DNA of 64,000 bases, from contig JAAPAO010000035.1 in NCBI GenBank assembly GCA_013115145.1, forward strand, positions 1-64,000, given 5' to 3'. The stretch comes from Perkinsus chesapeaki (Eukaryota > Perkinsozoa > Perkinsida > Perkinsidae). Under the pieces are notes generated by a model that saw only the letters and a program-made list of their open reading frames with translations, did not search any database and was not told the origin of the DNA. Positions 3 through 50,287 of this stretch are shown here, piece after piece (the first letter of the stretch is position 1; each line of letters begins with the position of its first letter). Position numbers and translations under genes: made by a program.

Positions 3-845
3 GATGCTTTTACTGGCTTTATGGTACATCGCGTGTTATCAGACCATGGTAAAGCTCCTGTATTAGTTGAAGCTCTAAACTCTGTTATGTTAGAACATGG
101 GTTCGTGATGGGTATCTTGTCAGATTCAGACCCCCGGTATAGTTCCGCCGAGATTCTAGCTTGGACGAAAGCTACAGGTATTCGCTGGTCTAGATGCCCT
201 GGTTATACCAGTTATCTCAGTGGATTTCATGAAGCTAAGCATAAATCTATAAATCGTATATTGCGAGGTTTATTACAGAAAAGTCGTTCTAATGGTTATG
301 AAACGGACTGGTATAAATTATTACCGAGAGCTGTTTATTTATGTAACAATGTCTGTCGTCCTTCTCTTGGATGTCCTATATTTCCAGCTGATGGTCACTA
401 TGTTTATGGTAGATCTTTACCCCCTAGTATTTGTCCACTACGTACCTTAAGTGCTGATGCTAAACAATCTCTTGATGATTTGCTACCTTTACCTATACCT
501 ACTACTCGTGAAATTACTAGATTGTTATGGGAGTATTCACAGGTTATTTCTGATGATCACCAATGGGTTGCTGAGAATATCGAAATTGGTCTGAGAAATC
601 GTGATGTGTATGGTGGTGTTAGTATTGCTAGATCAGATTTTGCTAAGTTGAAGATTGGAGATAAGGTGGTGAGATATAACTTTGACTGCTTAACACATAA
701 GCTATCTCAACGTTGGTTGAGTGATATTTATGTGGTATTGGACACTCGTGGTGTTATAGCTGCTATTGCCAAATCTGCTACAGACACTAATATCAAATAT
801 GAATATATTGGTAATTTGAAGAAGATTATAGATGATGATGAGTAA
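3..845 (+). CDS. Ty3-like retrotransposon integrase, 3' part of polyprotein
   Basis: The frame is open from base 3, so the 5' part lies outside the window. The first codon is the Asp of a DAFTGF block, fitting the first catalytic residue of a DDE integrase core. A second Asp follows in the SDSDPRY block (about residue 41) and the catalytic Glu sits in the FHEAKHKSINR block (about residue 77). After the core comes a C-terminal region with a KIGDKVVRYN stretch, like the chromatin- or DNA-binding tail of Ty3-type integrases. Codons are AT-rich and unlike those of the conserved genes further along, as expected for a mobile element. The ORF is intact to a TAA stop, so this copy may be young. I found no clear LTR or primer-binding site downstream. 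Reverse transcriptase, RNase H and gag would have to lie upstream of the window. Confidence 0.82.
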   Translation, partial: DAFTGFMVHRVLSDHGKAPVLVEALNSVMLEHGFVMGILSDSDPRYSSAEILAWTKATGIRWSRCPGYTSYLSGFHEAKHKSINRILRGLLQKSRSNGYETDWYKLLPRAVYLCNNVCRPSLGCPIFPADGHYVYGRSLPPSICPLRTLSADAKQSLDDLLPLPIPTTREITRLLWEYSQVISDDHQWVAENIEIGLRNRDVYGGVSIARSDFAKLKIGDKVVRYNFDCLTHKLSQRWLSDIYVVLDTRGVIAAIAKSATDTNIKYEYIGNLKKIIDDDE

Positions 846-1275: not shown

Positions 1276-1785
1276 ATGCACATCTGCAAGACCGTCGTAG
1301 TTCTCACTCTATCCGTGTGCGAGGGGCAGAGTCTGGCTAAGACCACTGAAGACCCGTTATTGGATGCCATTGAGAAAATGTTCAAGGGTTTCGTCGACGG
1401 AACAACGACTAGTCCGAGTTCTGACCACTCGGATGGAGAGAACAGCTTCTTCGACGGCATCAATCTCGATCTCTTCACTCAAAGGCCCTCAACCACGTTA
1501 GATGCTGTCGCTTCCAGTCCGGCACCATCAACATCCAACTCTTTCGGCGGTCTCACTATCGACCCAACGGAAGCGGTTGCAACCCCAGGATTAAGCATCG
1601 TGACAAAACAGGAGATTCTTGAAGATTACACCAGTCTCCTTGTTGCTATACTCATAGTCTTGATCTTAATCCTGGCTATTTTGGTGCTGCAATTGGTTTT
1701 GCCGAAATGTATGACTGGAAAAAGGTCAGAGGCCGCCGATGATCTAGAAGAGAATGCGGGGACAGTTAGCAGTTGTAGAGCATAA
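1276..1785 (+). CDS. FFD-module family protein, copy 1 (divergent, intronless)
   Basis: This is a 169-residue predicted type I membrane protein of the family that fills 8-23 kb. A hydrophobic N-terminus (residues 1-18) looks like a signal peptide. Two weak modules follow, SFFDGINLD (about residue 57) and FGGLTID (about residue 88), set in a Thr/Ser/Pro-rich stretch. A long membrane span follows the DYTSLL sequence (about residues 117-142). The tail DDLEENAG resembles the DLEQG tail of the others, and an ENAG motif also occurs in the spliced tail of the copy at 9.1 kb. It differs in having no tail intron, no shared promoter block, and a position outside the main array behind three conserved minus-strand genes. 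It may be an old member or one that lost its intron. Function is unknown. Confidence 0.72.
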   Translation: MHICKTVVVLTLSVCEGQSLAKTTEDPLLDAIEKMFKGFVDGTTTSPSSDHSDGENSFFDGINLDLFTQRPSTTLDAVASSPAPSTSNSFGGLTIDPTEAVATPGLSIVTKQEILEDYTSLLVAILIVLILILAILVLQLVLPKCMTGKRSEAADDLEENAGTVSSCRA

Positions 1786-2399: not shown

Positions 2400-3812
2400 T
2401 CACGTTCGCACTAAAGGCTCGAATGTACCTGCCGAACCATCCTGCAGGGTTGGTACAGGTCTGAACCACGAAGATGGGTCCACAAGAGCCGACGGGCTAG
2501 ATGATAAGCGCGCCCAATCGGTATTAGTGAGTCTAATACTGCTCACCGCCAAGACCAATGAGAACTCTTTTACTGTAGTCATGTTAGCATACTGGGTTAA
2601 GTCCATGTTATCATACATGCCTCGCTTATGCGCCAGCTTAGCAAATATACCTTCGGTTTGCCAGCAATGGACATGCTTAATCCGGTCGGTCGAAGCCCGC
2701 TCATCACTATGAGAGAATTCATCAAGATTGCCGAATCCCTCACCAGACTTCACAACATTACCGATATGATTCAATGCCACATGACCGCTGTACAAGGAGG
2801 TAACGGGCCAGTGCCAATGAGGCCAGCTCAAAGTTGACGCGCAGCACTTCTCGTACTCCGAGAACTCTTGCGTGAGTAACCACCGCGCTACCGATACACT
2901 CAGTCGAGCAGCTGCTCGGACCAGGCGGAACTCTCCAAACCAGGTGCTGCCAAAATTGTGCTTGTCGAAGTCGTTCCGAAGTTCCAGAGTGGCCGACACA
3001 TACGGCAGATGCCGTGCAGTATTCTCGATCATATAGCCCCCCGTTCCAGCGATGAGATTAACCTCTTGTGGTAGCGTCCAATTGTAAAAGCCTGGCATCA
3101 GGAAAACGTCGGCATCCGTTCTCAGTGCACTATCATAAATGTAACCGTCGTACTCGGCCATAGATAATATGCTATTCATATAGGCAGCATACCCCATGAG
3201 AGGATCCTCAGGTTCACCGATCGGTGTGCTTCTCGACTCGATAGGCGTGTAAGGAGCAATGACGCAGCTCGACGGGCCCCAATCGTTATGGCGGGGTTGA
3301 GTTTTACACCCAAGGCTTACAGCGAGATCGGAACCAGCTAGCTCGGTTAGAACGACGAGATCCGTTTTCAGTGTAGCCGGCTCGTGTGCCACCGCCAGGA
3401 GCCATGAAAGGTATAGAGCCTTGAACTCACGGGTGAAACCTTCAACCTTATCAGCCGGGAGACACACAAACACTCCGCGAACGTGAATGTGCGACTTGTT
3501 GCGCCCTTGCGCTAGAACTTCAAGTACAGAATCCACCTCCAGGGCCATTTCGTGAGTTTCGGCCTTCAGTCGGGCCCGTCCCTGGGGAGTCTTCCAGTAG
3601 GCCTCACTCCCGATAATCTCCCAGATGGGTCGAGACGTAGCCGTGGCATAAGTGAGCGAATTGTTGGTCTCAATGGAATGACGAAAACTTCTAGAAGGAA
3701 CCAGGAACGGTTTTCGTTTTAGATCATCATAGTGCAGGTGTGGCCACATGCCGAATTGCAAGCCCAAAAGGATGATTCCAGCGGTCACCGTAAAGACTGT
3801 TAGAACCACCAT
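2400..3812 (-). CDS. Type II membrane protein, glycosyltransferase-like (DUF7164-like)
   Basis: This is a 470-residue single-exon frame with a clear ATG. Residues 5-22 form a signal anchor, giving the type II layout usual for Golgi enzymes. The middle carries RTDADVFLMPGF (about residue 238), an acidic D-x-D setting expected of a nucleotide-sugar-binding GT-A-like site, and a conserved-looking HNFGSTWFGE block follows. From memory this resembles the DUF7164 proteins common in alveolates and stramenopiles, but I could not search. Donor and acceptor are not predictable. The last 40 residues after SSIRLTNTDW are low in family character and may include intron read-through. It lies on the minus strand, tail to tail with copy 1. 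Confidence 0.7.
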   Translation of the reverse strand: MVVLTVFTVTAGIILLGLQFGMWPHLHYDDLKRKPFLVPSRSFRHSIETNNSLTYATATSRPIWEIIGSEAYWKTPQGRARLKAETHEMALEVDSVLEVLAQGRNKSHIHVRGVFVCLPADKVEGFTREFKALYLSWLLAVAHEPATLKTDLVVLTELAGSDLAVSLGCKTQPRHNDWGPSSCVIAPYTPIESRSTPIGEPEDPLMGYAAYMNSILSMAEYDGYIYDSALRTDADVFLMPGFYNWTLPQEVNLIAGTGGYMIENTARHLPYVSATLELRNDFDKHNFGSTWFGEFRLVRAAARLSVSVARWLLTQEFSEYEKCCASTLSWPHWHWPVTSLYSGHVALNHIGNVVKSGEGFGNLDEFSHSDERASTDRIKHVHCWQTEGIFAKLAHKRGMYDNMDLTQYANMTTVKEFSLVLAVSSIRLTNTDWARLSSSPSALVDPSSWFRPVPTLQDGSAGTFEPLVRT

Positions 3813-8479: not shown

Positions 8480-8569
8480 ATGAAGTTCTCCACTATACTC
8501 TGCGCTCCCTGCATTGCTTTCTGTGGCGCATGGTTTGAAGGCCTGTCTGTCGAAGCCTTCGACTCATAG
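8480..8569 (+). pseudogene. Truncated FFD-module family copy
   Basis: An ATG opens a 29-codon frame: a signal-peptide-like start, then WFEGLSVEAFDS and a stop. WFEGLSVEA is the family's first module (compare FFDGVTVED). Everything after it, including the Thr/Pro-rich region, membrane span and tail, is missing, and AT-rich inverted repeats begin about 30 bp later. The promoter block upstream is well preserved. It could still be transcribed and make a short secreted peptide, but a broken copy is more likely. Confidence 0.7.
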
Positions 8570-8600
8570 GAGAATTCACTGCTTTACAGGGAATACCCAC

Positions 8601-8790
8601 CACTGGATTAGATAATGTAATTTAAATAAAGTACTGTATTAAATCCAGTGCTTTATTTAAATTACCCAAAGTTTGGGTCATTATTCGGGATTATTTGGGT
8701 CAAGCCATTTAATATATAGTTTGGGTCCCAAACTATATATAATATATAATATAATATATAATATAACATATTAATATATAATATATTAAA
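8601..8790. repeat. Nested AT-rich inverted repeats
   Basis: Arms are CACTGGATT (8601-8609) with AATCCAGTG (8642-8650), and GTAATTTAAATAAAG (8617-8631) with CTTTATTTAAATTAC (8651-8665); the two pairs interleave. A CCCAAA/TTTGGG palindrome follows (8665-8677), then a 14-bp-arm palindrome at 8712-8740, and long TA-rich sequence to about 8790. This may be a small mobile element (MITE-like) or its remains. Confidence 0.65.
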
Positions 8791-8964
8791 TATCATACAT
8801 AAGAATCTCATGATAAAATATATCACTTAGCTAATAAAAAAATAAATTCGTGAATAAATACACTAAATACCCATGACTTGAATTGTTGGGGCCGAATGCT
8901 ATCTCATCCGGTTCGAGGAAAGCCTTTCCCGAAAAGGTATACTCCCGCCAGGGCTCGCGCAGGG

Positions 8965-8991
8965 ATTTCGTGCAACTAACATGCAATTAGG
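8965..8991 (+). promoter_or_regulatory. Shared upstream element, copy 2
   Basis: ATTTCGTGCA (8965-8974) and TGCAATTAGG (8982-8991) have the same 17-nt spacing as at 8358 and 11330. A cgcgaccgcaggcg stretch follows, comparable to the GGCGACC block of other copies. The ATG is about 140 bp downstream. Confidence 0.6.
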
Positions 8992-9127
8992 TCACTTTTT
9001 CCGCGACCGCAGGCGCGGCGGTCGCGGTCGGGAGGATTTGTGGAGCTTGCACTCAGTGCAATGCACTGCGCAACTGTGGTTGGTCCTTGAAGCGAACATT
9101 TTCAGCTATTTAAAAGCCTATATTGTT

Positions 9128-9707
9128 ATGATTAGACAAGCTATCCTTCTCATTCTCTGCGTGCCTTCAGGGGCATTCTTCGAAGATTTGCATGTTGAAG
9201 ACTCAAGTGCGCTTGCCGGGTTGAACTTGGACGATGCTTCTTCGGCGACAAGCCCGAGGCCACTTGGTACACTCAAGCTCGGCACAGCAGTTACTCCGCG
9301 GCCGGGCTTATTCGAGGAATTGGCGATCGAGTCTATTCTCACGACAAGTACGGCCTCACATGTGGTGGATGAAGGCGAAGACACTGCAGCCCCAGGAATG
9401 AGCAACAGCTCTAAGCAAATGGAGAGCCCTAACTTAGGTGGACCTAGGGACTACCATGTGGTCCTAACTGCCTTACTTATCATTACCTCATTAGTCTGGG
9501 TAGTAGGCATGTTGCAGCTATGGGCCCTGATGAAGCTTGCTTCGGCTGCCCATCGGGAAAGGATAATTACAGACTTGGAGCAGGGGTAATAGCGATTATC
9601 TTGCCACTCCATGGCGGACACGCTTTAGTCTGAGTCATTTTAGGCATACGCTCGAGAAAGGGAGCATCAACTTCGACAATGAAGAAAATGCCGGAGTCGG
9701 CTCATAA
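9128..9707 (+). CDS. FFD-module family protein, copy 2
   Basis: Exons 9128-9585 and 9644-9707 give 173 residues; the intron is 58 nt. I chose ATG 9128 because it places a signal peptide (residues 1-15) directly before AFFEDLHVEDSSAL, as in the paralogues; the frame extends upstream to 8981. A second module GLFEELAIES lies near residue 61. A Thr/Ser/Pro-rich spacer leads to DYHVVLTALL and one membrane span with the family signature VGMLQLWALMKLA. The tail is DLEQG, then a short acidic end containing ENAG. The splice falls after the second base of the Gly codon in DLEQG, as in the other split copies. It is predicted to sit in the plasma or endomembrane with the modules outside. Function is unknown. 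Confidence 0.78.
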
Positions 9708-10600
9708 TTAAACAAACGATATTAGTATTATCATATTACACGTCAACGACGTGACGTCATGGCCGGGAAATGATGACCCTGACGCTGTGCCATAAGTAGT
9801 GGTGTCTGATAAAATCATCAATCCGGTTTTGTGTTAATATTAGTTCGATTCAAAACATGCCCACACTGTGCGTCGTAAAACAATACTTAGGATGTCCCAG
9901 CCTGGCTGTCTAGCTAACCCGAAGAGCAGAACAATGAGACAATCACCCGCGGACGAACTTCACAAAGCGGATAAAGTTAGTAGTCCGATTGGGACTTCCG
10001 ATGGACGAGTACCACTGGGAATACCTCTTGTTATAATATTATGAAAACGATGGGAACGTCGCAGAGTTCTTCCTCTACCTGTTGATCCAAAATCTGTATA
10101 ACAACACACTAGCTTGAGGGAGTCAGCGCCGCGAGGCTCTCAGAGGCTCTGAAGCAGAGCCTGGCTCTGACCTACTACTTGCAGCTCAATGTACTCATCC
10201 GCTGTGATATACTGTGAAACTTCAAGTTTCCAACTTGCCAAGCTCAGCTTGGTCCAAAGCGTACACAACATTAGAAATCCCAAGTCTTATGTAACAGTTA
10301 CATAACAGTTACATTGTAACTTACCAGGAGGAAAGCTGAAGTTAAATCACGGTTTCCAGTCAGCTCACTCGTGCCTCTGAAGCACGGGGTGACGAGTTTG
10401 TGAGAAATGCCCTATGAGATTTGTGAGACTTCATCGTTCTATCGTACTTGTACGTACCAGAATACTCCGGGAGTATTACTCCCCCATTGAAATTTGATAC
10501 TTCCCACGAAATTTAACGGTTAAATTTTAACCGGTGCCCCTATTCAGTAGTCAAGCAGCAGGGTAGTGACTATCATAGACTTCAGAGTGATGTTACTCGG
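9708..10600. other. Gene-free array spacer
   Basis: No coding frame is supported. Present are a short palindrome near 9738-9760 (gtcaacgacgtgacgtca), repeated gaggctctgaagcagagcctggctctga units near 10130-10170, and a cataacagttacataacagttacat repeat near 10290-10315. The sequence looks like diverged intergenic or element debris. Confidence 0.5.
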
Positions 10601-10614
10601 CAACACGTGTCAAA

Positions 10615-10905
10615 AGGACAAATGTAACCACCTACCCCGCATCCTATGTCAACCACGGTGATGCACTTTTCTCAGGCAAAAGCTCCTCCATAGCCTCAAA
10701 ACTGGAATGCCACTCGTCATTAGAATAAGCATCATAGTCTTCAGCGGCATACTCTTCATCTGACAGTAAATCTGCGACCAGCTCCATGTAAGCCGACTGC
10801 CATTGCTGGCCTTCTCCTCATCGTTATTTCCCTAGTCGGTAAGCATTTGCTTCTTCGTCCTATAACGCTTCTCCCAATAGCTAGCGCCTCCATATAGTAC
10901 TGTAT
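10615..10905 (-). pseudogene. Duplicated fragment of the methyltransferase gene
   Basis: This stretch matches about 7375-7665 base by base with scattered substitutions. It covers the end of exon 1 (YWEKRY region), the frame-change region, and the exon with motif I. Several substitutions would break the protein, and nothing of the other exons is present. The fragment is followed, in the same order as the original, by the copied upstream block (about 11095-11360) and then an intact family gene. It therefore marks a segmental duplication of the left array border. Confidence 0.82.
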
Positions 10906-11329
10906 ACGATTGTATATGTACGACCGCCCTTTATAAGCCGAGCGGCCGACGGCCTCATCTAATAGAAACAAGGGCCTTGTTACAAGGCACGACTAACAAA
11001 TGGGTACCACTCAGACAAGTGACCTGACCCTAGCGAGCAGAGAATGCAGTGGCCTCATAGTATAGATAAGAACCAGATTAAGAGTCTCTTAATAAGAGAC
11101 ACAATCGCCGATTCTACCGGAGGGACAATTGCTAGTTCCTCACTGAGGAGTCCTCAGCCATTATTCGTATAAGAGGCGAGATCAGGATACGGGGAACGAC
11201 AACTGTTTACCCATAGCGTTTTCCCAGTGAAGGCTAAACCCACGAACGAGGGTGCTTCATATTCAACCTCCGGACACGTCGTGCCCCATACGACACTCGA
11301 CAGCTGTCGCACGCGGGCGACACGTCCGA

Positions 11330-11356
11330 TTTTCATGCAAATTACCTGCATTTAGG
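11330..11356 (+). promoter_or_regulatory. Shared upstream element, copy 3
   Basis: TTTTCATGCA (11330-11339) and TGCATTTAGG (11347-11356) have the 17-nt spacing seen at 8358 and 8965. An aatgtccgcagcattctgcgatcaacgcag block follows, similar to the one before copy 6. The start codon is about 170 bp downstream. Confidence 0.65.
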
Positions 11357-11524
11357 CCAATGTCCGCAGCATTCTGCGATCAACGCAGATTAATCCCTAA
11401 AGAGAGTCGTGGCAAATAGGTAGCCCCATTCTTGGAAGAGCTATGTTTCATATTATGAAATTCATAAGCACTGTTCCATTGAGCAACGTGCTTTCAGCTT
11501 CATTAGTTTTAATACTATATTGAT

Positions 11525-12113
11525 ATGTGGTGCGTAACTGCCATCCTTCTGGCTTACCTCTCCAAAGGGGTGGCTGACTTTTTTAGTAGCTTTTCTGTCG
11601 AGGATCCTAGCACACTCGAGAATTTGGCGCTTACCGGGCCTTCTCCCACCCAAAGCCCGCCCATCGATAACACCGGCTTCTTTGATAGCATCACTGTCGA
11701 GAGCGCCCTCCCAGAGTATCCGGCCCTGCATGATAGGGAAAGTTCAACTACGACTGCGATGCTTGAAGTTGAGAGCTCTACCCCGTCAAGCCCGGGAAAA
11801 TTGGAAGGCGCGGCTCAACAGATAGGCGACCCGCTGAACCCGTCCGAGGTTAATCAAGACTACAATGGTATTATCAGTGCAGTGTTAGCCATCTGTGGTA
11901 TCACGTTGATGGTTGGGCTGTTGCAGCTGCTAATCTTGAAAAAGATTGCTCTGGGAGTATCACAATTGCAGCAAGCCGCGGATGTGGAACAAGGGTAAGT
12001 ATGAAGCCCGTTAAAACGTTAGTGTTCACATGCTCATTTCCATCTTCAGGTACAGGTTGAGCAAGGGGAAGACTAGTGATGGCGAAGACGTGGCGATGGG
12101 CAGCCTATCATAG
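11525..12113 (+). CDS. FFD-module family protein, copy 3
   Basis: Exons 11525-11994 and 12050-12113 give 177 residues; the intron is 55 nt, gtaagt to cttcag. A signal peptide (residues 1-17) is followed at once by DFFSSFSVEDPSTLENLAL and then a second module GFFDSITVES (about residue 51). The middle is Ser/Thr/Pro/Glu-rich. The span after QDYNGIISAV carries VGLLQLLILKKIAL. The spliced tail is VEQGYRLSKGK and then an acidic end. This is the cleanest short member and the best template for the family. It sits on a duplicated segment whose left part carries the methyltransferase fragment. The role is unknown; the layout suggests a surface protein or receptor-like adaptor. Confidence 0.82.
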
Positions 12114-12640
12114 GCTCCTGAAAGATAAGACGCTTTGTGCAGCATGACCAATCTGAGTTGTACCGATTAAACTAAGGGCCTTAGGTCTAAGGCTATTGTG
12201 CTGCGTTTCAAGTTGTTTAATAAACAGTTTATTGTGGTAAGGCTATTCCTCTCAACTCAGAAGTTCCAAGCTAGTACCAAACTGGTGGTGCAGCATAATG
12301 CTACCAGCATATTACTGGCGCCACCAGAGCCCATTTGGTTATTTCAAAGCATACATTGTATACTATACAGTGTATAGTATACACCCCTCCATGTGATTTT
12401 AGCATAATCGGTTTTTCCCACGTATCTGTGCTGTACATAAGTGTTTGAGTCTATCCTTCACAGTGTGAAGTTCACACAGGGTTATGACAATACTAGTCTA
12501 CCATAAGTTATAGTATAGGTTATAGTTATAGGTGTATATTAGTCATATTAAGTATAGTTATAGTATATGTACTAGGTCTTCGTGACGAAGCGGCGGAGCT
12601 CGTTCAGCTGTTATTTTGCTCGTTGTTAGTTCGTCATCAC
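12114..12640. other. Gene-free spacer with palindrome
   Basis: The palindrome GTATACTATAC (12358-12368) / GTATAGTATAC (12372-12382) has 11-bp arms and a 3-nt loop. Runs of tatagttatag/gtatatt repeats lie near 12505-12570. I see no gene. Confidence 0.6.
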
Positions 12641-12644
12641 ACGC

Positions 12645-12731
12645 GTAGTGCTTTGGAGGTCCGAGCGAGTGATCAAATCGCGCGGAAACGATTTAGAGAA
12701 GAAGTCGTGGGTTCAAATCCCACATGCCACA
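12645..12731 (+). tRNA. tRNA-like sequence (long-variable-arm type) or tRNA-derived repeat
   Basis: A perfect T-arm (12707-12723, 5-bp stem, loop TTCAAAT), a B-box and a 3' stem ATGCCAC, followed by a T run typical of Pol III stops, suggest a Leu/Ser-type tRNA. The A-box region (ggtccgagcgagtgatc) is only partly right. The 5' acceptor strand pairs badly, and no convincing anticodon arm is visible. It may be a decayed tRNA or the head of a SINE. Confidence 0.35.
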
Positions 12732-15700
12732 TTTTTCCGTCAAATAATGTTTTTGCTTTTTCACTCGACACACGGGGTAGCTTTGAAAAAATTACAAATT
12801 TTCTAGGCATCCCCAGAGGAAGAGGAGTCTTTTCGTCTATAGATCATCAGCTAGTTCGCTCTGGTTAACGAGAAATAATTCGTACGCACGCACGCACGCA
12901 TGGCGAAATGCTCCATTTCCAGATAATAAGCTCCGCTCGCTTCGCTCGCTCCGCAACTTATAGGTTATAGTCTGTAACCTCAAAGGTCCAGGTCTTAACT
13001 TATTAGCTTCAGCTTAGCTGGAAGCCTAAGCAGGGTCAGACGGTCCCGTCTGTCACCAGATAATTTGAAAGCCTTGATGGTCTTACGATCGTGAGTTGGA
13101 CGCTTGTTGAACTCTCCGTGTTCGCTGTGGCAGTTTTTGTGTTTCTGAGTATAAACATGTTGCATTTAGTCAAATTTGAGTATGGTGTAGTGTTGCGAGT
13201 AGAAACCGTTAGCCTTAATCCGTATTGAGCCGTATCGTAAAAAGTTACGAGATCGTAAGTCGTACCGTAACCGTAATCATAATCGTAAAGACGCCCATGT
13301 CTAGGCTCAGAGCTCAGTCCAGGGTGGCAATGCAACAACAGTTGCTAGCTAAGCTAGCCTAACTGGTGTTTGTTGATGATAAACTGTAAAAGCCAACCTC
13401 TCCTCGCTGTGTATGTTCCTACCAATAGTACTGCTACTGCTGCCTCTCGACGGTGACTCACTATTGATGAGGAAACGAGTCTGATGATAATCATTGCTCT
13501 GCGGAGGTTGAGCTTCTACTAGCTCACCGCGCGCATTACGTACTACCATATATGGTCATTGCGGCTAGTAGGACCAGTTGCCAGTCCTTGCCAGCAAAAG
13601 CAGGTCTATAGACACTTTCGCTTGCACGCTTTTTCTTCATGCGTGTTGTATGGCAAGCTACAGTTGACTTTTGGTCAATAACCACCCGGATGAGTATCCC
13701 GGTCAGACCATCTCTCGTCTACTCAGTACTACTCCCAATCTAAATAGTAATCTTGCGTTGAACTATTAACGGACAAATATGCGGTATCCACGGCTGCGGC
13801 TGCCGCAGTCAAAACCTAAACTATTCAATGCGTAAGGAATATGCTGTATCCAAAAGAAGGTACGAATCTACTGGCAGAGATTACGACGGAATCGCGGTAT
13901 AACTGAAAACATCGGTAGTGCTCATATCCTTGGAACTCGCCGTAAGTAACTTGCATACTAAAGCGAGTAATTTTAGTGAATCATGACACGCGATGCCAGC
14001 ACGCGCCACTACAAGCGACTGTTAGAAGATGCGCTGGAAATATTAATAGTGAGAAAGAAGGTATATCAAACGGAGATTTCGTAACGGAGTCCATAATGTA
14101 TTTCATATCATACGGCCGCAGCGAGAAATTCTCACATTTATTCCCCGTGCCGTAAAAAAACAGTGACGACTACCGTAGTAGCTCTATGACATATAGCACT
14201 GGAGATTTCATGAGCAATGAGACTCATTGAACAAGTTACTGCCAATAACGACATAGCGCAGGTAGGAACTTTGTCAAGAGCTATCACGGTGGGAAGCGTG
14301 CACGCGGCGCGAAGCACGCCGCTCCCTCGAGTTTACGAAAGACCCAGCTTATCAACACACGCATCCGCCGGTGAGTATCAAGAAATAAAGAGACCGTCTG
14401 GACTGAAGTAGTGCTAAAAGACTGATCGAACGTAACCTTTACGTTTGGGTTTAAGCCAAGTTCACGTTGAGTTCACAGCTCCAGACTGAGTCAGATATAG
14501 CTGCACAACGAATCGTTGTCAATGACGAAACCGACTCCCACTCACATTAGCATACGCGTATTATGGATACAACATCATCCATGAGGTGGCTCATCGATTG
14601 CTTCTCGCTTTTGTAGCAGCAGTCTTGCAAGCAGCTTGAAGCAAGTTGCCGCGGTCACCGGAAGAAAGACGGTCTTTCAAATACCATAAGATCGCAAAAG
14701 CTGCTGCTGCTGCCAGCTATTGAATACCGCATTACTCAACATGGTAGAAGCAAGCATTTAACTACCCAAGAAGTAAATACCCAAGTCAGAAGAATAACAC
14801 GAGCCCAGTTGTTGGAAAGTTTTCAATTTAAGAGTACTTGTCAACATGACGGGGGATCCGCGTGGCGTCTGGTTAGTCTCGTGCCCGGAGGGCCGAATGA
14901 CCTCGGAGGTCACGTCAATTAAACTGACACAAATACCTGCCTGCCTGTAACTCATGCTGCCTGCTAAACTGCTGCTCATCGGTGCTGCAGATGTTGGGCC
15001 TGCCACATACAGGAAACAAATCTATTAAACCCGACGCGTTCTTTATCATCGACTTAAGAGGCGACTTTACTAATGGTAAGATAGAAAGGTTGTAGAAGAA
15101 GGCAATAACTAGAGACTTGCGAAGAATAAGAGAAGCTTGCTTAACGAAAGTGACACAAAGCCCTGCACACGAAACGTCTGGAGCTCGACGTCGATCCGAC
15201 CAACTCGCTATTAGCGATAAGCTATGCTATAGAACTGCCTGATAAATGAAAACCTCATTGCCGTCATAGGCATCGCACCCGGGCAGAATCCCTGTCGCGG
15301 AAAGAAGTATTTTGAAATTGGAAGTTGAAATAGACACAATCTTGACCAATTTAAAATCAGAAGACATGGAAACAACTCCATCGAGTCAACGCAACTAACA
15401 CAAACTCATTAGATTGAAAATGAGGATCAGTAAATAGTATTTACTACACGTCAACATGGGTCGTGTTGTTCAATACATGCAACTGTCTATTCCTTGTGGC
15501 TGTAACTCGTCGGACTTGTGCACAATACCTGTAGGCGACCTGCTCCATAACAGAACATAGCATGATATACATAGCACATCCAAGAAAATATAACTATTAT
15601 AGTTATACGCAGACTGAATAAGGTTGGAGATTGATGAAAACGATGTCGAGAGTATTTCCAAGTAAGGGTTCCTTGCCAAGGTAAAACGTGCAAAACATTT

Positions 15701-16279
15701 GACAGGCTTCTCAATCTGAAGAATACAGCCTACAACTTCACAACAACGTTTTCCGGTTTTAGTGGACTCTATCAACTAGAGGGGGGGGGTTCCGTCAAGT
15801 TGCTTCATCAAAGGTTATAAGACAGAAAGCCGACAATACTTTTTATCACTATGATAATACAGTCTGCATTGTTTAATAGGATTCGTAATTTGTATCGTCA
15901 TTATCGAATCAAGAGTAAGTACATATTATGCTTTATAGAGCTATAACCTACACAAGCAATATCTTTGAACATGTCAGGATGACGGGATGACAATTCTCTG
16001 GTGAATCTAATCGTTAGACTCTAATGGCCAGATCTAAGAGCTGGAGTCCAAGAAGCAGTGCTGGTCAATGCAGTTAATACTAAATTATCCAATGCCGCCG
16101 AATAGCACTTCATTCAAGACTTTTTCGCCTGGTACTGTCACTATGACAGTGTCATAGCACAGATTATGCTGCACAACAAACCGGAATTCAAGACGACATG
16201 CGATCAAGATCAGAGACGCAAAAAAAAGACTCAACTCAAGCACAATTTGCGCCGCACAATGTGGAAGAAAAATGCATGC
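12732..16279. other. Long gene-free stretch
   Basis: About 3.5 kb has no supported gene on either strand. Visible are an ACGC microsatellite (12881-12900), a cgctcgcttcgctcgct repeat (about 12933-12950), a run of nine or ten G (about 15781), and small palindromes. Minus-strand frames at 13036-13338, 14758-15006 and 15470-15775 have no family match, no splice logic and skewed composition. This is probably decayed intergenic or element DNA within the array. Confidence 0.55.
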
Positions 16280-16320
16280 ATTTCGTGCACTTGGGCGAGA
16301 ATAGAGTGGTCGGCGACCGT
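16280..16320 (+). promoter_or_regulatory. Shared upstream element, copy 4
   Basis: ATTTCGTGCA (16280-16289), preceded by TGCATGCA, is followed by cttgggcga and then TCGGCGACCGT (16310-16320). The whole aligns with 18751-18800 before copy 5. The ATG is about 120-160 bp downstream. Confidence 0.6.
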
Positions 16321-16438
16321 CGCTTATCGGAAGTTGGAATTATAAGGACTACGAGGTTTGATGCTCAACATAAAATGTTCTAGGTCGTAGACTTGGTTTC
16401 TCAGCTATTGTACTCCATTGGTGTAACACCAAGTTAAC

Positions 16439-17291
16439 ATGATTAACATCGCAATCCATTTAACAGTTTTAATATATATTATATGTTTCCCTGGCAATGG
16501 GATGGATTTTTTGAGTGACATAAGCATTGAAGATCCGAGCACCCTTGATGACTTGTACTTGGATGACACGCCTACGATACCGATTCCGGATACTACAGTC
16601 GGAATCAGTCCAAACACTGGTTCTACACCTCAGCCTGGCCTCTTCGACCATTTGACTATCGAAAGCCCCTTTCCATGGTTCAGCCAACCTGGTGGTGCTG
16701 CGCCCGAGTATCCTTCCACCAGGTTCAACCTCTTTGACGGTGTGGTGCTCGAGAACCTGACCACAGCAGCACCAGGTCTGTTTGATGGCCTATATATCGA
16801 AGATCCTCGCTCAGGCGACACCAGCCCCATCGAAGATATGGCACTGAAGAATGGTTTTTCAGAAGATGTGAGCACTGAGAGCCTCTCTACAACTCACCCT
16901 ACCAGCGTTGCATATGCACCTACACCTACGGTTGTCCGAGACCCATCGGGTGAGATCAAACCCGACCTAGTAGCGGTATCCGCTACTAGGAGCCATCTGG
17001 GAACCTCTAATGATTACTCTATTATCCTAGTAGTTGTGGTGGTAATCCTGGGGCTACTGCAATTGGTGGGGTTATTGCAGACGTGGATACTGCAGAGAAG
17101 CTTGCGTGAGTCAACACAAGTGAAATGCACCAAGGACTTGGAGCAGAGGTACAACTGAAACCGTCAAGGGTTCTGAGTTTATTGTCTTTCTCCATTTCAG
17201 GTATATCCGTGATAAAACGGCGGATCTAGAAACCGGCTGCAAAGAAGATATCATCGCGGAAGACTCCACTGGGAATATGGGTGGCAAGTAA
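16439..17291 (+). CDS. FFD-module family protein, copy 4 (expanded)
   Basis: Exons 16439-17148 and 17201-17291 give 266 residues, the longest member; the intron is 52 nt. The signal peptide covers residues 1-21. The first block is MDFLSDISIEDPSTLDDL; three more modules follow: GLFDHLTIESPF (about residue 64), NLFDGVVLENL and GLFDGLYIEDP. So the extra length comes from repeated modules. A Thr/Ser-rich stretch precedes SNDYSIILVV and the span with VGLLQTWILQRS. The spliced tail is DLEQRYIRDK, then an acidic end with Cys. A damaged copy of this 3' exon and the sequence just after it occurs at 21.1 kb. Module number variation suggests the outer part is what evolves. Confidence 0.82.
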
Positions 17292-18740
17292 AAGAATTAC
17301 TTAATCCTACCACGAAGCCATGACAATGTGATGTCCACACTGATTCGCTGAAGAGGCATATCCCGCGTTCATAGTAATGAATAGTTATCAATCGAGATGG
17401 TCTGACCATCATGGTCAGTGCAATACGAATTGGCTGTACCAGCTCGGGTGTGAAAGTCATCCGCGCATATTATGACATTGCCTAGTTACCTTTCTACATG
17501 TGCCGGTGAATCTCCAGAACCACGAGATTTCGACAGGCTGACCTAATTTCTACTGCACCTTGCAGTGACTGCACTGCGCTTCGCGTATAACATATGCGCA
17601 GTGAGGAATTGTTACCAGGAATATCACGCGGCCTGCCAACTAAAGATTTCGCGGCATACGAGTCCCGTACACCGCACTCGATTCACGAATAATTCGTGAA
17701 TTGAACTATTCTTGAAATTATAATTATTAATGAAAAATTATTTTTGAGCCATGGCAAACAATCCGACAAACTCGCCGGGCCGGCTGTCATGCCGCTTGCC
17801 ATGATGGAAATCCGAATTAATCAATTAAATATAGAGCGCCGACAGCCGGAATCTGCGGAAGTGGGAATATCTTTATATTGATTACTGTTATTAGTTTACG
17901 ATTATTTGATTATTAGTTACGAGTGGAGTAAGGTACCACCTTGAAGCTCTCGCCGAGCGATTTCTAATACTGGGTCGCCCACTGCGCCCATTCGAATTGG
18001 GCTCTGAGTAATGGTTTAACAAAGAAATCGTTACATAGAGAAGTGAGAATTTACGAGTTTTCGGAATGCTATTTCAACAGTTTCTCGCCGTTTTTTCGCG
18101 AGATGTGCCTACAGTAGGCAGCCTACTGTACATGCAAAACAGAGTAACACAAACGTCACAGCCGCTGTGGGCCATAGCCTGTGGCATCGAGACTGTGCCA
18201 CAGCGCTGGTGGTATAATAAATGTATCTACATCTTCGTCGAGCAGCCTGCTCGGAGCAGGGTATAGTTTTGGTTCGATCTGCAGAGGGTCGTGACTCATG
18301 ACTCTTGAGTTCGATTCCCAATTGCAACTCCCAACTTACAACGGTAGTTCCTTGTTACACATCTTTCCACGAGCCTAGCGCTAATGCGTGCTTTCGTGTG
18401 TTTTTGCACGTGCATTAGCGTGAAAAAACGCTGTGTTTTGCGCGTGTAGCGTCTCAATGGCATTAAGACAAGAATTAGATTCTACGACTTATTATTGGGT
18501 TTATATGAAGCGTTTACGACTCATTTAGAGGATTCTAGCGTTAGCCAACCGCGGTCAGCCCTATTACGACTGGGCTGCTGAGATAGGGAAGTTCCCTAAG
18601 GTAACGTCGGGTTTAACTTGGTCAGCTTTGTGACTATCCATCAGATCGAGTCCATCTTCTCAGCTAGCCTCTCTACTTCCCCTCCAAGCGGGCGTGCGAA
18701 CGTTTAACTGTATATTTCTTGCAACGCTCCACGCGCGACC
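17292..18740. other. Gene-free array spacer
   Basis: No gene is supported. An AT-rich patch with gaattcatt-type repeats lies near 17690-17745. At 18290-18325 a gagttcgattccca B-box-like motif sits in a tRNA-like half, too incomplete to call. Small palindromes occur at 18108-18130 (gtaggcagcctac). Confidence 0.5.
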
Positions 18741-18744
18741 GCGC

Positions 18745-18800
18745 ATTCGTGCAGTTTTCGTGCATTTAGGTGAAATGTCCACAAGAGTCGGCGACCACCG
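18745..18800 (+). promoter_or_regulatory. Shared upstream element, copy 5
   Basis: ATTCGTGCA (18745-18753) is followed by TTTTCGTGCATTTAGG (18755-18770) and TCGGCGACCACCG (18788-18800), about 75-130 bp before the ATG at 18874. This is the most compact version of the block. Confidence 0.65.
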
Positions 18801-18873
18801 GAAAACTACCTTTAGGCGATATAAGGACATTAGACTAGATGAGACTATTTCAGTTAAAATCCGAAACCTTAAC

Positions 18874-19420
18874 ATGTGGTCTTTGCTTGCAATGTCTTGT
18901 GCCTACGCCTTTCTGGGTGAGGCCAGCTTCTTTGACGGCGTCACTGTCGAAGACCCGAGTAGCCTCGCTCAGCTGCAGCTGGAAGTCTCTTCCGCAACTG
19001 ATCCAGTCAACTCTGGAAGGCCCACTACACCGAGGCCAGGTCTCTTCGATAGCATGGCTATCCATATTCCTGATGAGACCAATCCAGCTGATGACACGAG
19101 CACGACCACGCCTGCGTTCGATGCACCCAGAATGAGCAATGAACGGGGCCAGTCTGGGTTTTACCAGGACTACACCGGAATCCTCATTGTTCTGGTCATC
19201 ATCGTTGGGTTACTCTTGGCAGTGGGGCTATTGCAGTTTTGGATGTTGAGGAAGATCGCTATCGGATCCCATCTAAAACGAGCTACAGACTTGGAACAAG
19301 GGTAAGAGATAATTGGCGAAGTTTCCTCTGAATGAATTAGGTTTGAGATTTATTTTCAGATACCAAGTAGGCAAGGGAGCTGGGGCGGAAACTCACTCAG
19401 AGGCCGTCATAGGACAATAG
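18874..19420 (+). CDS. FFD-module family protein, copy 5
   Basis: Exons 18874-19301 and 19360-19420 give 162 residues; the intron is 58 nt. ATG 18874 is chosen because the paralogues start at the signal peptide; the frame itself is open from 18694. The first block is SFFDGVTVEDPSSLAQLQL and the second module is GLFDSMAIHIP (about residue 57). A Thr/Pro spacer leads to QDYTGILIVL and a span with VGLLQFWMLRKIAI. The spliced tail is DLEQGYQVGKG. Two modules, an intact span and intact splice sites suggest an active gene. Function is unknown. Confidence 0.8.
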
Positions 19421-20950
19421 GTCACAGATTTTATGTCCGATTACATGATAACTGTTGTACTGGTTAATATAAGTGGTAGGAACCGTGTCTAGTTTTGAGA
19501 ATTGTCAATTACAGTGTAGTTATTGCACAACGTATACTACGCTCGAAGGTTTTCACTGGAAGCTACATTAAGTGTAGTACATGTAATTTTCTGAAACCGG
19601 AAGATTTCTGGTTGGTTGACGTTAGTGGAGAGAAAATTTCCCTAAGAAATAGAGACACAACGGCACAATTTGGCACTGGGTGACCCAGTCTGGGTCAACA
19701 GCACGCAGTGCCAGAACACCTAATAGGCGTCCAGTAACTGGACCCCAGTAGGCTCTGTATTGGCATCCGGAGCAAGCACTGGCGGTGACCGGCACAACTG
19801 TTCAATGGCGGCGCGCACCGCGCGCCGCGCATTATTCCTTTCGCAATATGGAGGAATTCGGCGGCAATCTTTGGCTTCTTTGAAGCAAACCTGCTCCTGA
19901 GAGGGCTACTTCAACTCAGAATCTATATAATATCTTTAGGGAAATAATTCTATATTCTAGTTTCAGTATCGCTCTCACACTAGGACTCGGACCATGGCGG
20001 CGGTCGGTTCGAGCCTCTACCTTTCGTCTCTTGTGCACTGAGCATGCACAAAGCGCTTCTCGAACGTCTTGCTAGTGACCGTTTCGTGACTACTACACTT
20101 CCGACTGAGTTACACATTTGCTTTATCACTCTTACATTGTCATAATTGCTCCTTAATATGGGCCCTCATGTCCTACAGTAATTCTCGTTCTGCTTTGATT
20201 TCAAGTCAATTTTTATTTCTCCTTCCACATTGCCACCCTTAATTACTGACGGTAATTGACCGCGATGCAAGGACAGTAGAGCAATAAATTGCGATAATGA
20301 ACACAGCGTGCTAGATGAATACGATGAATAATTTTATTCATATAATATATGACTATATAATAATATAAATATTATTCAACTACACTCACAGAGAGTGATG
20401 ATTGCATGCTACCGAGGGATAGATGAGCACATTCCTAGCTATTCCCGAACATCACTTCTATACCGTATAGTCCCTCAGAGTATATACGGCCAGCACAAGT
20501 AATACCTGATCCCTTTATTTTCACGAAATTTTAGTCCGCAGAGCTACCCCGCACAGATTACTGATGAAATGTTCCCGTATGCCTGGTATACGCGTCTCCA
20601 GGAAGAGATGGCAGTTGCCAGCCGTCACCACTTAGAACCTAGAGGCCAAATGTAACGAATGGCAACCGCAGCGGCTGCACGACCACGTTATAACTACTAC
20701 GTCATATACTAAGTTAACCATATTCTAGTTGGTAATCAGGCTCGAGTGGGAATGGCCCAACTCCCGGCTTCGCTCATCAGAGAGTAGTTCCCATACCCCA
20801 CGCTCGCGCGTATCCCCCCAAATGCCACAGCCCATGCAAAAGGCAGAGCGTCACGGCTAGGTCGTTCGCGTAAGAACGAATTTCCTACAGATGCGATCGA
20901 CTGACTTTTACGAACTGCCTAGGAGCAAGAAATATACTGATACCTTCCAA
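19421..20950. other. Gene-free array spacer
   Basis: A GC-rich palindrome (cggcgcgcaccgcgcgccgcgc) lies at about 19810-19832. The stretch around 20520-20610 resembles 23375-23450, downstream of copy 6 (shared agattactgatgaaatgttcccg / agattcctgataaggggttcccg pattern). This spacer therefore also belongs to a duplicated segment. No gene is supported. Confidence 0.5.
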
Positions 20951-21060
20951 CCGGTAACTACCTCCTTATCGGTGAGAACATGAACAACACCATCCCAACC
21001 CAAGAGATAATCACGATCGAAGTGAAAACCGATGATTGGCCAAGGACCTGAGGACCAGAT
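20950..21060 (-). pseudogene. Fragment of proteasome beta-3 gene
   Basis: On the minus strand this reads LGWDGVVHVLTDKEV, matching the beta-3 exon SGWGGVVYILTDKE at 23986-24060. The DNA match extends across the exon into both flanking introns. Upstream exons are absent. It shows that a segment running from a family copy into the right flanking gene was duplicated into the array. Confidence 0.75.
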
Positions 21061-21079
21061 ATATGCGTGATTGAACGGC

Positions 21080-21200
21080 AGACCCAGAAACCTACTGCAA
21101 AGATGTCATCGTGGCAGACTCCACTTTGAGTACGGGTGGCAACTTGCCACTGGCAAGCAAACGAATTGCTTAATTCTGCCAAGAAGCCACGACACCGTTT
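21080..21200 (+). pseudogene. Damaged copy of a family 3' exon
   Basis: The sequence matches about 17225-17325, the second exon of copy 4 and its 3' flank (aaagatgtcatcgtggcaga against aaagaagatatcatcgcgga, and gggtggcaa...aattgcttaattctgcca). No first exon, modules or span precede it. It directly adjoins the proteasome beta-3 fragment. Confidence 0.65.
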
Positions 21201-22218
21201 TGTACCTTATAATGAGGAAATAAAACAACATCAAGAATATGACGATTATACACCATGATCACATTGACCTTTCCATTGTGAACTAACCAGTTCAAATTTT
21301 CACATTTCAACTTTCAGTTGCTGAAGTCTGTTGAAGTTAGATTATTGATATCAAAACGTTCAGTAGATATACGTAGGAAACTTACCAAACCGTCGGGTAA
21401 GGTCACATCGTGAACCGATTATTCGATTGGAAGCTTTAATAAAGCTACTCAAATACTAAAAACTCAGGAAATATCATTAAAATAATCCATTTCATATGTT
21501 CAAGGAATGCCTAGCCCTGAGATAGTACTCCCGAAAATTTTCAAATCGTCTAAAGAGAAGGGATATGTTATTTTCTGCGTAAGGCGATAACAAATGTCTC
21601 CTCACCTTAGTTCCAACCATTTGAGGCTTGAGCGACTGAGGATGAGCTATCCATGGGGCGACTCGACGGGCTTCTTCGAATACACGTGGATGGGAAGAAT
21701 GTCGTCGTGATATGATCACCTGAAACTTAGTAGTCACATTTACGAAGAAATCATGGTAAATCTTATTGGTTCCAAGATCTATCGGGCCCGATCTGTAACT
21801 AGACACAACACAGGAAGCCTTTCTGAGGAAAACACTTATATGAACCAATCCATGCTAGCCCAAACAACAGGGGTACATGTGCCATATACATCCGCATCAC
21901 GTTCAGTGTGGCGCAGCTTCCTCCCTCCCGTTCAATTCTTGACCGTCAGATTTCGCGACTTTCCACTGAAATCTTCAGCTAGAATAACAAAAACCACATG
22001 AACATCATATAAGCACTCTCCTGCCGAGGACCTATCCAGAACAGGAACATGCGGACATATCAAATTGATAGGTCTCTCCATATTATATACTCTATATATT
22101 AGAATATATATTACTCTTAATATACTATATCTATATAATCTCTACATATCGATATTATCAATGTAACGCTGAAAGCCTGCCTATAGTTAGCGTGGCGAGT
22201 CGCGACTCGCCCATGCAG
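21201..22218. other. AT-rich spacer before copy 6
   Basis: A dense TATA-type stretch lies at about 22080-22160. A minus frame without an ATG at about 21492-21845 (GTNKIYHDFFVN, RVFEEARRVAPWIAHP) looks more protein-like than chance, but I do not recognise it. It may be a fragment of a transposon or duplicated gene. Confidence 0.4.
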
Positions 22219-22282
22219 ACTTCGTGCATTCATGCAAAATGCAAGACGCGCAGCAGTCTGCGATCAATGGTTGCCGACCACC
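22219..22282 (+). promoter_or_regulatory. Shared upstream element, copy 6
   Basis: ACTTCGTGCA (22219-22228), a TGCA-rich core at 22233-22242, then cagtctgcgatcaat and TTGCCGACCACC (22271-22282). A ctggttttgtcagatctgg block at about 22333 resembles ctggttttctcagatat before the truncated copy at 8440. The ATG is about 140 bp further on. Confidence 0.55.
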
Positions 22283-22420
22283 TTGGAAACTATTTGCAAA
22301 CGCTTGTATGGGAGCTCGAAGCAATAGTGAAACCTGGTTTTGTCAGATCTGGTTTTACCTAAGGGCTTCAAGATCAAACTCCTCTGTCTTAGCTATTTTA
22401 ATTCCACACCACTCTATAAA

Positions 22421-23136
22421 ATGCGGTTCACATATCCATTTTTCATGCCCTACCTCCTTGTCTGTGGGATGAGTTTTTTCGATCAAATCGAGATTGAAGC
22501 TCCTGATTCTCTACAAGAACTCCAGGCGTCGGAGCCAATGCCAACTTCAACACCAACCCCCAACAGTATGATCGGTCAAGACTCGCCCACAGGAACGCCT
22601 AGCTTCTTTCACTTATTTGCCGAAGGCTCGTTCACAACAGGGTCTCTGGAGCTCACAGATACTACGACAGCAAAGATGAGCTCACCTGGTGGAGTGAATG
22701 AGGAAAGAGGTCCTCCTACAACTCCTACAACCGGCATTTTCGATGGGCTCTCCATTGAGAGCCCATTTACTACAAGAGCCGGCCTGTTCGACGGCATAAC
22801 GTTGGATACTATCCCCACTTCAACTTCGGTATCGCCAAAGGAGATTCGGCCTGAAGGCACTCAGGCTCCGAGGATAAGAAGTCAGCTAAGACAACCAAGA
22901 GATGAACAGAGTTACTTCGGTTTATTAACTGCTCTTACAATAATCTCCGGATTTATTTTGCTGGTTCTGCTACTACAGCTTCTAAGCCTCAAGAAGATAG
23001 CGCTCAACACCCTACAGCCGGCAGATCAAAGGTAAGACGGCAATACCACAATTGATGCAGGAATTTAACTTGTTTCAGGTACAGGGTGAATACCGAAACT
23101 ATACCAGCCGCAGACATGCTGAAGATACGGTATTAG
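22421..23136 (+). CDS. FFD-module family protein, copy 6
   Basis: Exons 22421-23031 and 23079-23136 give 222 residues; the intron is 47 nt. The signal peptide is about residues 1-16, directly followed by SFFDQIEIEAPDSLQEL. Further modules are SFFHLFAEGSF (weak), GIFDGLSIESPF and GLFDGITLDTI. Thr/Ser/Pro-rich linkers lie between them. SYFGLLTALT opens the span, with LLLQLLSLKKIAL at its end. The spliced tail is ADQRYRVNTE, then a basic end. With copy 4 it is the expanded type. It is the last member before the conserved minus-strand genes. Confidence 0.8.
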
Positions 23137-33941: not shown

Positions 33942-34172
33942 AGTTTAAGTGCCTGTTGGCAGGTAAGGCAGCAAGCGCTCGGTATGAGCCGGCAATATGC
34001 TCAAACCGAGTTCCTCCCCTCTCGAGAGCTGCCAAGGACTGTATGAATTCATATCCATTCAAACGTACACTGATTTTTGTGACTATAACAGTTGTTACTT
34101 GTTTCCCCTTCATTGGCCTCGTGTTCGTAACTGAACATAATACCGCTGCAAAACAGTTTGAACTTGCCAAAA

Positions 34173-50097: not shown

Positions 50098-50287
50098 GTT
50101 TAAAAAGACTAAGCAACTCGGGAAATCGAAGACCCCTCTGTGAAGAAATCGGATAATATTTCCGACATTCCCACTCAAATCATGCTCTAACTGCCAACGC
50201 GGAGAGCCCATAGATCGGACGTTGTCAAGTAACGGAAGAGCCGAAGAATGGGAAGCCCCAGCCTCTTCAACTCAACACCACAGGATT

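What the first reader, a model, noticed from the sequence alone, without database searches (positions are those of the whole stretch)
8480..23136. Undescribed-looking multigene family of modular type I membrane proteins
Six intact members (1276, 9128, 11525, 16439, 18874, 22421) and one truncated one (8480) share the same plan: signal peptide, an immediate FF(D/E)xxxVEDPSxL block, further (G/S)(L/F)FDxLxIESP modules, Thr/Pro/Ser-rich linkers, a very conserved span ending VGLLQxxxLxKIA, and a short DLEQG-type tail. The outer part varies in length and module number; the span and tail are conserved. That pattern fits a surface or vesicle protein family with variable outside and constrained inside. 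I know no named family with this plan.
Basis: partly seen in the sequence, partly recalled or inferred. Interest (0 to 1): 0.9.

Follow-up and report, generated by a model that had tools for sequence, protein, structure and literature searches.

The report
Perkinsus modular membrane protein gene family
A clam parasite carries a scattered family of small genes, matching no Pfam family, for membrane proteins that seem to display copies of one short motif outside the membrane on a flexible, possibly sugar-coated stalk.

Summary
The window is a Perkinsus chesapeaki contig. Six paralogous genes (1276, 9128, 11525, 16439, 18874, 22421) and one 5' fragment (8480) lie on one strand. Two corrections: the "DLEQG tail" is the end of exon 1 in five of six genes, where a phase-2 intron precedes 18-29 further tail residues; and 1276 lacks the FF block and the intron. 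Eleven related genes lie on seven other contigs. Shared plan: signal-like peptide; an 11-residue module near (G/S)FF(D/S)(G/S)IxLDP, in 14 of 17 right after it and often repeated; a cysteine-free, acidic, Ser/Thr/Pro-rich outer part; one span with a Gln 5-6 residues before the first basic residue (13 of 15); a D(L/V)E tail motif (9 of 15). One close pair has dN/dS 0.31, so these are constrained genes. Upstream regions share TCGTGCA and GGTCGC/GCGACC elements, resembling two of three site types listed for Plasmodium AP2-I. No Pfam family reaches cut-off for 17 of 17. Best reading: co-regulated type I stalk proteins displaying a repeated short ligand, most likely at the parasite surface. Location, expression and partner are unshown.

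The parts
1276..1785 (+). Divergent family member, single exon, 169 aa: signal-like peptide, inner module SFFDGINLD, span with Gln, tail DDLEEN; lacks N-terminal FF block, intron and the strict upstream elements
8480..8569 (+). 5' fragment: signal-like peptide plus degenerate first module (29 codons) then stop; upstream element present; not read further
9128..9585 (+). Member, exon 1 (intron 9586-9643)
9644..9707 (+). Member 9128, exon 2 (rest of cytoplasmic tail); protein 173 aa
11525..11994 (+). Member, exon 1 (intron 11995-12049)
12050..12113 (+). Member 11525, exon 2; protein 177 aa
16439..17148 (+). Member, exon 1, four outer modules by matrix (intron 17149-17200); NCBI FOL47_006290
17201..17291 (+). 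Member 16439, exon 2; protein 266 aa
18874..19301 (+). Member, exon 1 (intron 19302-19359); NCBI FOL47_006291
19360..19420 (+). Member 18874, exon 2; protein 162 aa
22421..23031 (+). Member, exon 1, three modules by matrix (intron 23032-23078)
23079..23136 (+). Member 22421, exon 2; protein 222 aa
8361..8384 (+). Upstream element TCGTGCA..TGCATTTAGG before fragment 8480
8968..9025 (+). Upstream elements TCGTGCA (8968), GCGACC (9003), GGTCGC (9020) before 9128
11335..11356 (+). Upstream element, diverged copy, before 11525
16283..16318 (+). Upstream elements TCGTGCA (16283) and CGGCGACC (GCGACC at 16313) before 16439
18735..18796 (+). Upstream elements GCGACC (18735, 18791) and TCGTGCA (18747, 18758) before 18874
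22222..22279 (+). Upstream elements TCGTGCA (22222) and TGCCGACC (149 bases before the ATG) before 22421

Best explanation
These are co-regulated, single-pass type I membrane proteins of Perkinsus chesapeaki that act as stalk-like display proteins. SHOWN in sequence: the signal-like peptide; the 11-residue acidic-aromatic module placed right after it and, in many members, repeated along the outer part; the cysteine-free, acidic, Ser/Thr/Pro-rich linkers; the span with Gln near its inner end; and the short tail with D(L/V)E in 9 of 15. INFERRED: after signal cleavage the module forms the free N-terminus. The extended, probably O-glycosylated stalk holds one to five copies of it (five counted by eye in C2a) away from the membrane, so that a partner (another coat protein, a lectin-like receptor or a secretory sorting receptor) binds with avidity. 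The intramembrane Gln packs the spans into homo- or hetero-oligomers. The tail motif binds a cytosolic adaptor that places the protein at the cell surface or in a secretory vesicle feeding it. Copy number of modules, not point diversity, tunes the display. The shared upstream elements would switch the set on together, plausibly through AP2-type factors, and the mRNAs of the window members probably receive a spliced leader.
For: Same plan, with exceptions named below, in 17 gene loci on eight contigs. Module at residues 16-23 in 14 of 17, mostly with small residues before it as expected of signal peptidase sites (rule recalled). A module matrix trained on one group recognises the other at shuffle p <= 0.02 in 14 of 17. 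Outer part: 0 Cys in 15 of 15, S+T+P 27-38%, net charge -9 to -21, at most one N-glycosylation sequon. Gln 5-6 residues before the first basic residue in 13 of 15 spans; shuffled spans average 1.2, at most 7 in 20,000 trials. Phase-2 intron at the same tail site in five window genes and C113. dN/dS 0.31 for C735a/b, third codon positions most changed. GCGACC/GGTCGC in 12 of 18 and TCGTGCA in 9 of 18 upstream regions, p 8e-10 and 1.7e-9 against 318 genome segments, beyond 500 of 500 random draws; either element in 14 of 18 v 1 of 8 other ORF starts. Spliced-leader-like acceptor 26-40 bases before the ATG in 7 of 7 window members.
Against: No transcript, proteomic or localisation evidence was available. 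Signal peptides and spans were judged by hydropathy and by eye, not by SignalP or a topology program. Structure prediction could not be run. Some members break the plan: 1276 has no first module; in C223c and C308 it is degenerate; C735a/b lack the Gln; six of 15 lack the tail motif by the pattern used (tails of C735a/b, C2a and C223a may be incomplete, as later introns were not resolved); C319 has only a weak span; in C308 no span was seen, the gene lying near a contig end. 4 of 18 upstream regions (1276, 11525, C113, C2b) lack both elements in strict form. The control is eight ORF starts, not all proven genes, so a general Perkinsus promoter element is not excluded, and tandem copies are not independent. 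The acceptor pattern was chosen among four tried and is seen in only 9 of 18 overall. O-glycosylation is guessed from composition.
Confidence: 0.5

Rival explanations
1. Secretory-pathway sorting or granule-forming proteins: the module just after the signal peptide is a luminal address read by a cargo receptor, and the D(L/V)E tail couples cargo clusters to coats. The proteins stay in vesicles or extrusomes instead of forming a coat.
For: The module sits at the predicted mature N-terminus in 14 of 17, the position where amino-terminal export tripeptides bind Surf4/Erv29p (PMC6097701, title and start of abstract seen in the listing). Tail motif shared by members on four contigs.
Against: The Surf4 motif is described for soluble cargo, whereas 15 of 17 of these have a strong hydrophobic span. 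Modules are repeated far from the N-terminus, which a position-dependent tripeptide would not need.
Confidence: 0.25
2. Variant surface antigens for evading or engaging host haemocytes, diversified by duplication and module shuffling.
For: Tandem array, scattered paralogues, variable module number. The host takes up Perkinsus through galectins that bind glycans on the trophozoite, and clam MaGal1 binds P. chesapeaki strongly (PMC7053492 and PMC2868825, passages).
Against: dN/dS 0.31 overall and 0.24 in the outer part for the only pair with unsaturated dS. Modules recur across the family. About 17 loci is few for an antigenic-variation repertoire (counts are lower bounds).
Confidence: 0.12
3. 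Bipartite plastid-targeting leaders or remnants of plastid-targeted proteins: signal peptide followed at once by Phe, then Ser/Thr-rich stretch and a stop-transfer span, as recalled for dinoflagellate class I leaders.
For: Phe at or near the predicted mature N-terminus, Ser/Thr-rich stretch, span.
Against: Net charge of the stretch is -9 to -21 in 15 of 15 and only 8-48 residues follow the span in the frames read, so there is no passenger.
Confidence: 0.03
4. Chance open frames or decaying repeats, not genes.
For: Short ORFs on a contig that starts with a retroelement-like integrase frame (below Pfam cut-off) and one clear fragment (8480).
Against: Shared intron position and phase, NCBI models for three members, codon-position pattern and dN/dS well below 1.
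Confidence: 0.02

Closest known systems
Mucin-like / stalk type I surface glycoproteins of protists (general kind; recalled)
   Same: Signal peptide, Ser/Thr/Pro-rich cysteine-free outer part, one span, short tail, multigene
   Different: A defined acidic-aromatic 11-residue module at the predicted mature N-terminus and repeated; conserved Gln in the span; strongly acidic; no Pfam relation found
Apicomplexan lineage-specific surface families such as RIFIN, STEVOR, PIR (recalled)
   Same: Multigene, partly tandem, short few-exon genes for membrane proteins
   Different: No Pfam match to any, single span, tiny outer part without cysteines, low dN/dS in the one pair measured
Surf4/Erv29p amino-terminal export motifs (PMC6097701, listing only)
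   Same: A hydrophobic motif exposed right after signal cleavage
   Different: Membrane-anchored proteins, longer motif, internal repeats
AP2-I regulated gene set of Plasmodium (PMC6631176 passages)
   Same: Upstream GTGCA-type and GGTCG/CGACC-type elements; AP2-I is listed with GTGCACTA and GGGTCGACCC (and a third, TCTTGCC)
   Different: Element spacing and the binding factor in Perkinsus are unknown; resemblance of motifs only

Membership tests
Any named Pfam-A family | profile match above curated cut-off | tested here: not met
   0 of 17 genes (6 window, 11 others, several of the latter as single exons) reach a cut-off; best sub-threshold hits DUF4083 E 0.01, Ninjurin 0.011, Herpes_BLRF2 0.022
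Proteins of known structure | sequence match to a PDB chain | tested here: not met
   best E 0.84 (profile of six) and 0.53 (C113), both integrin beta-3 spans; the other members not searched singly
Type I single-pass membrane protein | cleavable signal peptide then one span, N-out | tested here: inconclusive
   hydrophobic start and a hydrophobic 19-residue segment of mean 2.2 to 3.6 in 15 of 17, basic residues after it; no dedicated predictor or experiment
Mucin-like stalk protein | Ser/Thr/Pro-rich outer part | tested here: met
   27-38% S+T+P in 15 of 15
Mucin-like stalk protein | dense O-glycans | not testable with these tools
   needs glycoproteomics
Dinoflagellate class I plastid leader (recalled) | basic transit stretch and a passenger protein behind the span | tested here: not met
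   charge -9 to -21; 8-48 residues after the span in the frames read
Surf4 amino-terminal-motif cargo | soluble cargo with the tripeptide at the new N-terminus | tested here: not met
   spans present in 15 of 17
Antigenically diversifying surface family | diversifying selection in the outer part | tested here: not met
   dN/dS 0.24 over 72 outer codons of C735a/b; one pair only
AP2-type co-regulated set | shared upstream elements enriched over other genes | tested here: inconclusive
   14 of 18 v 1 of 8 control ORF starts, Fisher p 0.003; control small, factor binding and expression not tested

The most novel reading that the evidence does not exclude
The module is a new kind of luminal or extracellular address: a free N-terminal and iterated FF(D/S)(G/S)IxLDP ligand read by one dedicated Perkinsus receptor, carried on a glycan stalk that also bears the galectin ligands through which bivalve blood cells take up the parasite. 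The whole gene set is switched on together by an AP2-I-like factor using two of its site types, which would place invasion-type gene control near the base of the Myzozoa, before Apicomplexa.
Probability: 0.12. Interest if true: 0.85.

Novelty: new variant of a known kind. Interest (0 to 1): 0.55.

Why it matters
The review seen here in passages (PMC7053492) says the detailed mechanisms of Perkinsus recognition and entry remain to be fully understood, and it discusses glycans and host galectins. A defined set of about 17 short candidate genes with a shared motif and shared upstream elements makes the parasite side directly testable. If the upstream pair really is read by an AP2 factor, it would also say something about when invasion-type gene control arose.

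Tried and rejected
Plastid leader: rejected on charge and absence of a passenger. Chance ORFs: rejected on introns, NCBI models and codon pattern. Integrin beta-3 resemblance (E 0.84 and 0.53): taken as span composition, rejected. Weak genome hits C557 (E 0.165, a stop inside) and C641 (E 0.5): read on the matching strand only (one search had shown the other strand); C557 shows no module or first-exon plan, C641 is an isoleucine run; both rejected. C94:33747 showed no family-like frame; C399 shows two module-like stretches in different frames, possibly a relic, left uncounted. A module codon pattern over the genome gave 31 matches v 16 for the reversed control: 12 of 31 lie in family genes (one gene, C319, new), 18 were read and are not family-like, 1 (C786) had no locus. 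The stricter pattern gave 7 v 1: 4 in the window family, C308, C94 and C399. The 22-base upstream pattern gave 10 matches v 1 control; four (0-1 mismatches) precede family genes in C279; C810 (1 mismatch) showed no family-like frame of 60 residues or more; C189, C390, C428, C749 and C797 (2 mismatches) were not examined as genes. A search with 76 residues of 16439's module region found only itself. Protein searches with single sequences found only the query itself; P0002 did not even find its own paralogue P0001, so the absence of relatives in other Perkinsus species is weak evidence. The module matrix test missed 9128, C2a and C308 (in C308 the scan stopped short of its module).
Full report
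WHERE IT IS. The window is the first 64,000 bases of a 115,623-base contig (C279) of a genome held in 884 contigs, 35.4 Mb. Proteins encoded on a contig of the same length are named Perkinsus chesapeaki FOL47_006290 and FOL47_006291 in public collections. P. chesapeaki is a perkinsozoan alveolate.

WHAT IS THERE. They match one another in tblastn with E down to 1.7e-21. A fragment at 8480-8569 keeps a signal-like peptide and a degenerate first module and then stops. Five of the six genes have a second exon. The frame ends near (D/A)(L/V/D)(E)Q(G/R) because a phase-2 intron of 47-58 bases begins there; exon 2 adds 18-29 residues. NCBI models FOL47_006290 and FOL47_006291 (window genes; tails) and FOL47_003311 (C113; whole length) agree with my splicing, though the first two start at inner ATGs. 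9128, 11525 and 22421 were not returned by the profile search whose query contained them, so they may be missing or modelled differently in public annotation. 1276 differs: no intron, no FF block at the start, no strict upstream elements.

THE FAMILY IS LARGER. Searches of the same genome with single members, then with newly found members and with module codon patterns, gave related genes at C113:49187 (three exons), C735:72597 and 74243 (a pair), C2:67218 and 150433, C392 near 15,613, C223:124833, 200714 and 204984, C319:4237 and C308 near 150 (close to the contig end). That makes 17 gene loci plus the fragment, a lower bound. Links by E-value are a chain: C113 to the window 4e-8, C223c to 9128 2.9e-4 in the genome and 3e-7 in the window, C735a to C113 3.5e-4, C392 to C2a 0.003 and C2b to C2a 7e-15, C223a/b to C735a 0.017 and 0.034. 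C2a to C113 is weak (0.6) and C319 to the window weak (0.016); these rest on the shared plan. C308 and C319 were found by module patterns, so for them the module is not independent evidence.

THE PLAN. I chose 40 module copies by eye (14 in C279, 26 elsewhere). A matrix trained on one set and tested on the other finds a module at shuffle p <= 0.02 in 14 of 17 proteins (misses 9128, C2a, C308). The module reads (G/S/D)(F/L)F(D/S)(G/S)(I/V/L)x(L/I/V)(D/E)(P/D/S)P. By eye and position a clear copy lies at residues 16-23 in 14 of 17; it is degenerate in C223c and C308 and absent in 1276. In the 15 proteins with a readable span, the outer part has no cysteine (15 of 15), 27-38% S+T+P, net charge -9 to -21 and at most one N-glycosylation sequon. 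In 13 of 15, a Gln stands 5 or 6 residues before the first basic residue after the span; shuffled spans average 1.2 and never exceed 7 in 20,000 trials, though the sequences are related and not independent. The tail pattern D(L/V)E is present in 9 of 15. Among the seven closest proteins the span is most conserved (0.44), then module 1 (0.37), linkers 0.24, signal peptide 0.15.

SELECTION. C735a/b: dN 0.20, dS 0.64, ratio 0.31 over 125 codons; outer part 0.24, span and tail 0.41; third positions change most (50 v 22 and 18). So in this pair the outer part is, if anything, more constrained than the inner. The other pairs (18874/9128, 18874/11525, C223a/b) are saturated or nearly so at synonymous sites and agree only in direction.

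UPSTREAM REGIONS. I compared 300 bases upstream of 17 genes and the fragment with 318 segments of other P. chesapeaki sequence held here. GCGACC/GGTCGC occurs in 12 of 18 v 25 of 318 (p 8e-10), TCGTGCA in 9 of 18 v 10 of 318 (p 1.7e-9). The smallest p in 500 random draws of 18 segments was 8e-7 for 6-mers and 2e-8 for 7-mers. Most copies lie 50-200 bases before the ATG. Six of the nine TCGTGCA copies (both strands) in the window lie upstream of family genes or the fragment; the p of 2e-9 uses zones drawn after the fact. Against eight other ORF starts in the window, either element is in 14 of 18 v 1 of 8 (Fisher p 0.003). Eight is a small control and not all are proven genes, so a general Perkinsus promoter element is not excluded. 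In the AP2 review, AP2-I is listed with GGGTCGACCC, TCTTGCC and GTGCACTA, and some AP2 factors are said to be conserved in P. marinus (PMC6631176, passages). This is a resemblance, not a test. A spliced-leader-like acceptor lies 26-40 bases before the ATG in 7 of 7 window members and 9 of 18 overall, v 6.6% of 50-base background pieces; it is the last of four patterns tried. Spliced-leader RNA in P. marinus is stated in the abstract listing of PMC3101222.

COMPARISON WITH KNOWN THINGS. No Pfam family reaches cut-off for 17 of 17 genes, several given as single exons. The best PDB matches are integrin beta-3 spans at E 0.84 and 0.53, which I take as composition. Ten paper searches were made. Those aimed at such proteins in Perkinsus listed no paper on this family by title or abstract start; two searches listed only 20 of 2,990 and 8 of 7,596, and 12 of 15. 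Only open-licence papers are held. I saw passages of four papers (PMC2868825, PMC7053492, PMC6631176, PMC4501334) and no whole text.

HOW IT PROBABLY WORKS. See Best explanation. The anatomy is read from sequence; display, oligomerisation by the Gln, tail binding, glycosylation and co-expression are inferred. I put about 0.5 on a surface display stalk, 0.25 on a secretory sorting or granule role, 0.12 on variant antigens.

VERDICT. A real, constrained gene family, unnamed as far as these searches reach, of a known general kind but with a distinctive N-terminal repeated module and span motif. Interest 0.55.

Noticed in passing
window 50288-51451 (-): Gene matching glycosyltransferase family 10 (fucosyltransferase), Pfam PF00852, E 4e-18. 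A review says fucosyltransferase genes are absent from the Perkinsus genome (PMC7053492 passage), so either the species differ or the statement needs checking.
   Followed up: partly
window 2400-3812 (-): Protein with DUF7164 (PF23741, E 3.5e-51) and a hydrophobic start by eye, between member 1276 and the rest of the array.
   Followed up: partly
window 3-845 (+): Open frame with a weak integrase core match (PF00665, E 0.0024, below cut-off): probably part of a retroelement at the contig edge.
   Followed up: no
window 34158-35564 (+): Glycosyl hydrolase family 20 gene (PF00728, E 3.2e-37) with a hydrophobic N-terminal stretch by eye.
   Followed up: no
window 49336-50211 (-): JAB plus MitMem_reg domains, the layout I recall for eIF3 subunit F.
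   Followed up: no
C399, L055 around 1330-1520: Two module-like stretches (LDGITMEPP, LFDGITLD) in different frames of the same stretch, perhaps a decayed family member. Not mended.
   Followed up: partly
window 8590-8800: AT-rich stretch with what look like inverted repeats directly after the 8480 fragment; an insertion may have ended that copy (by eye).
   Followed up: no
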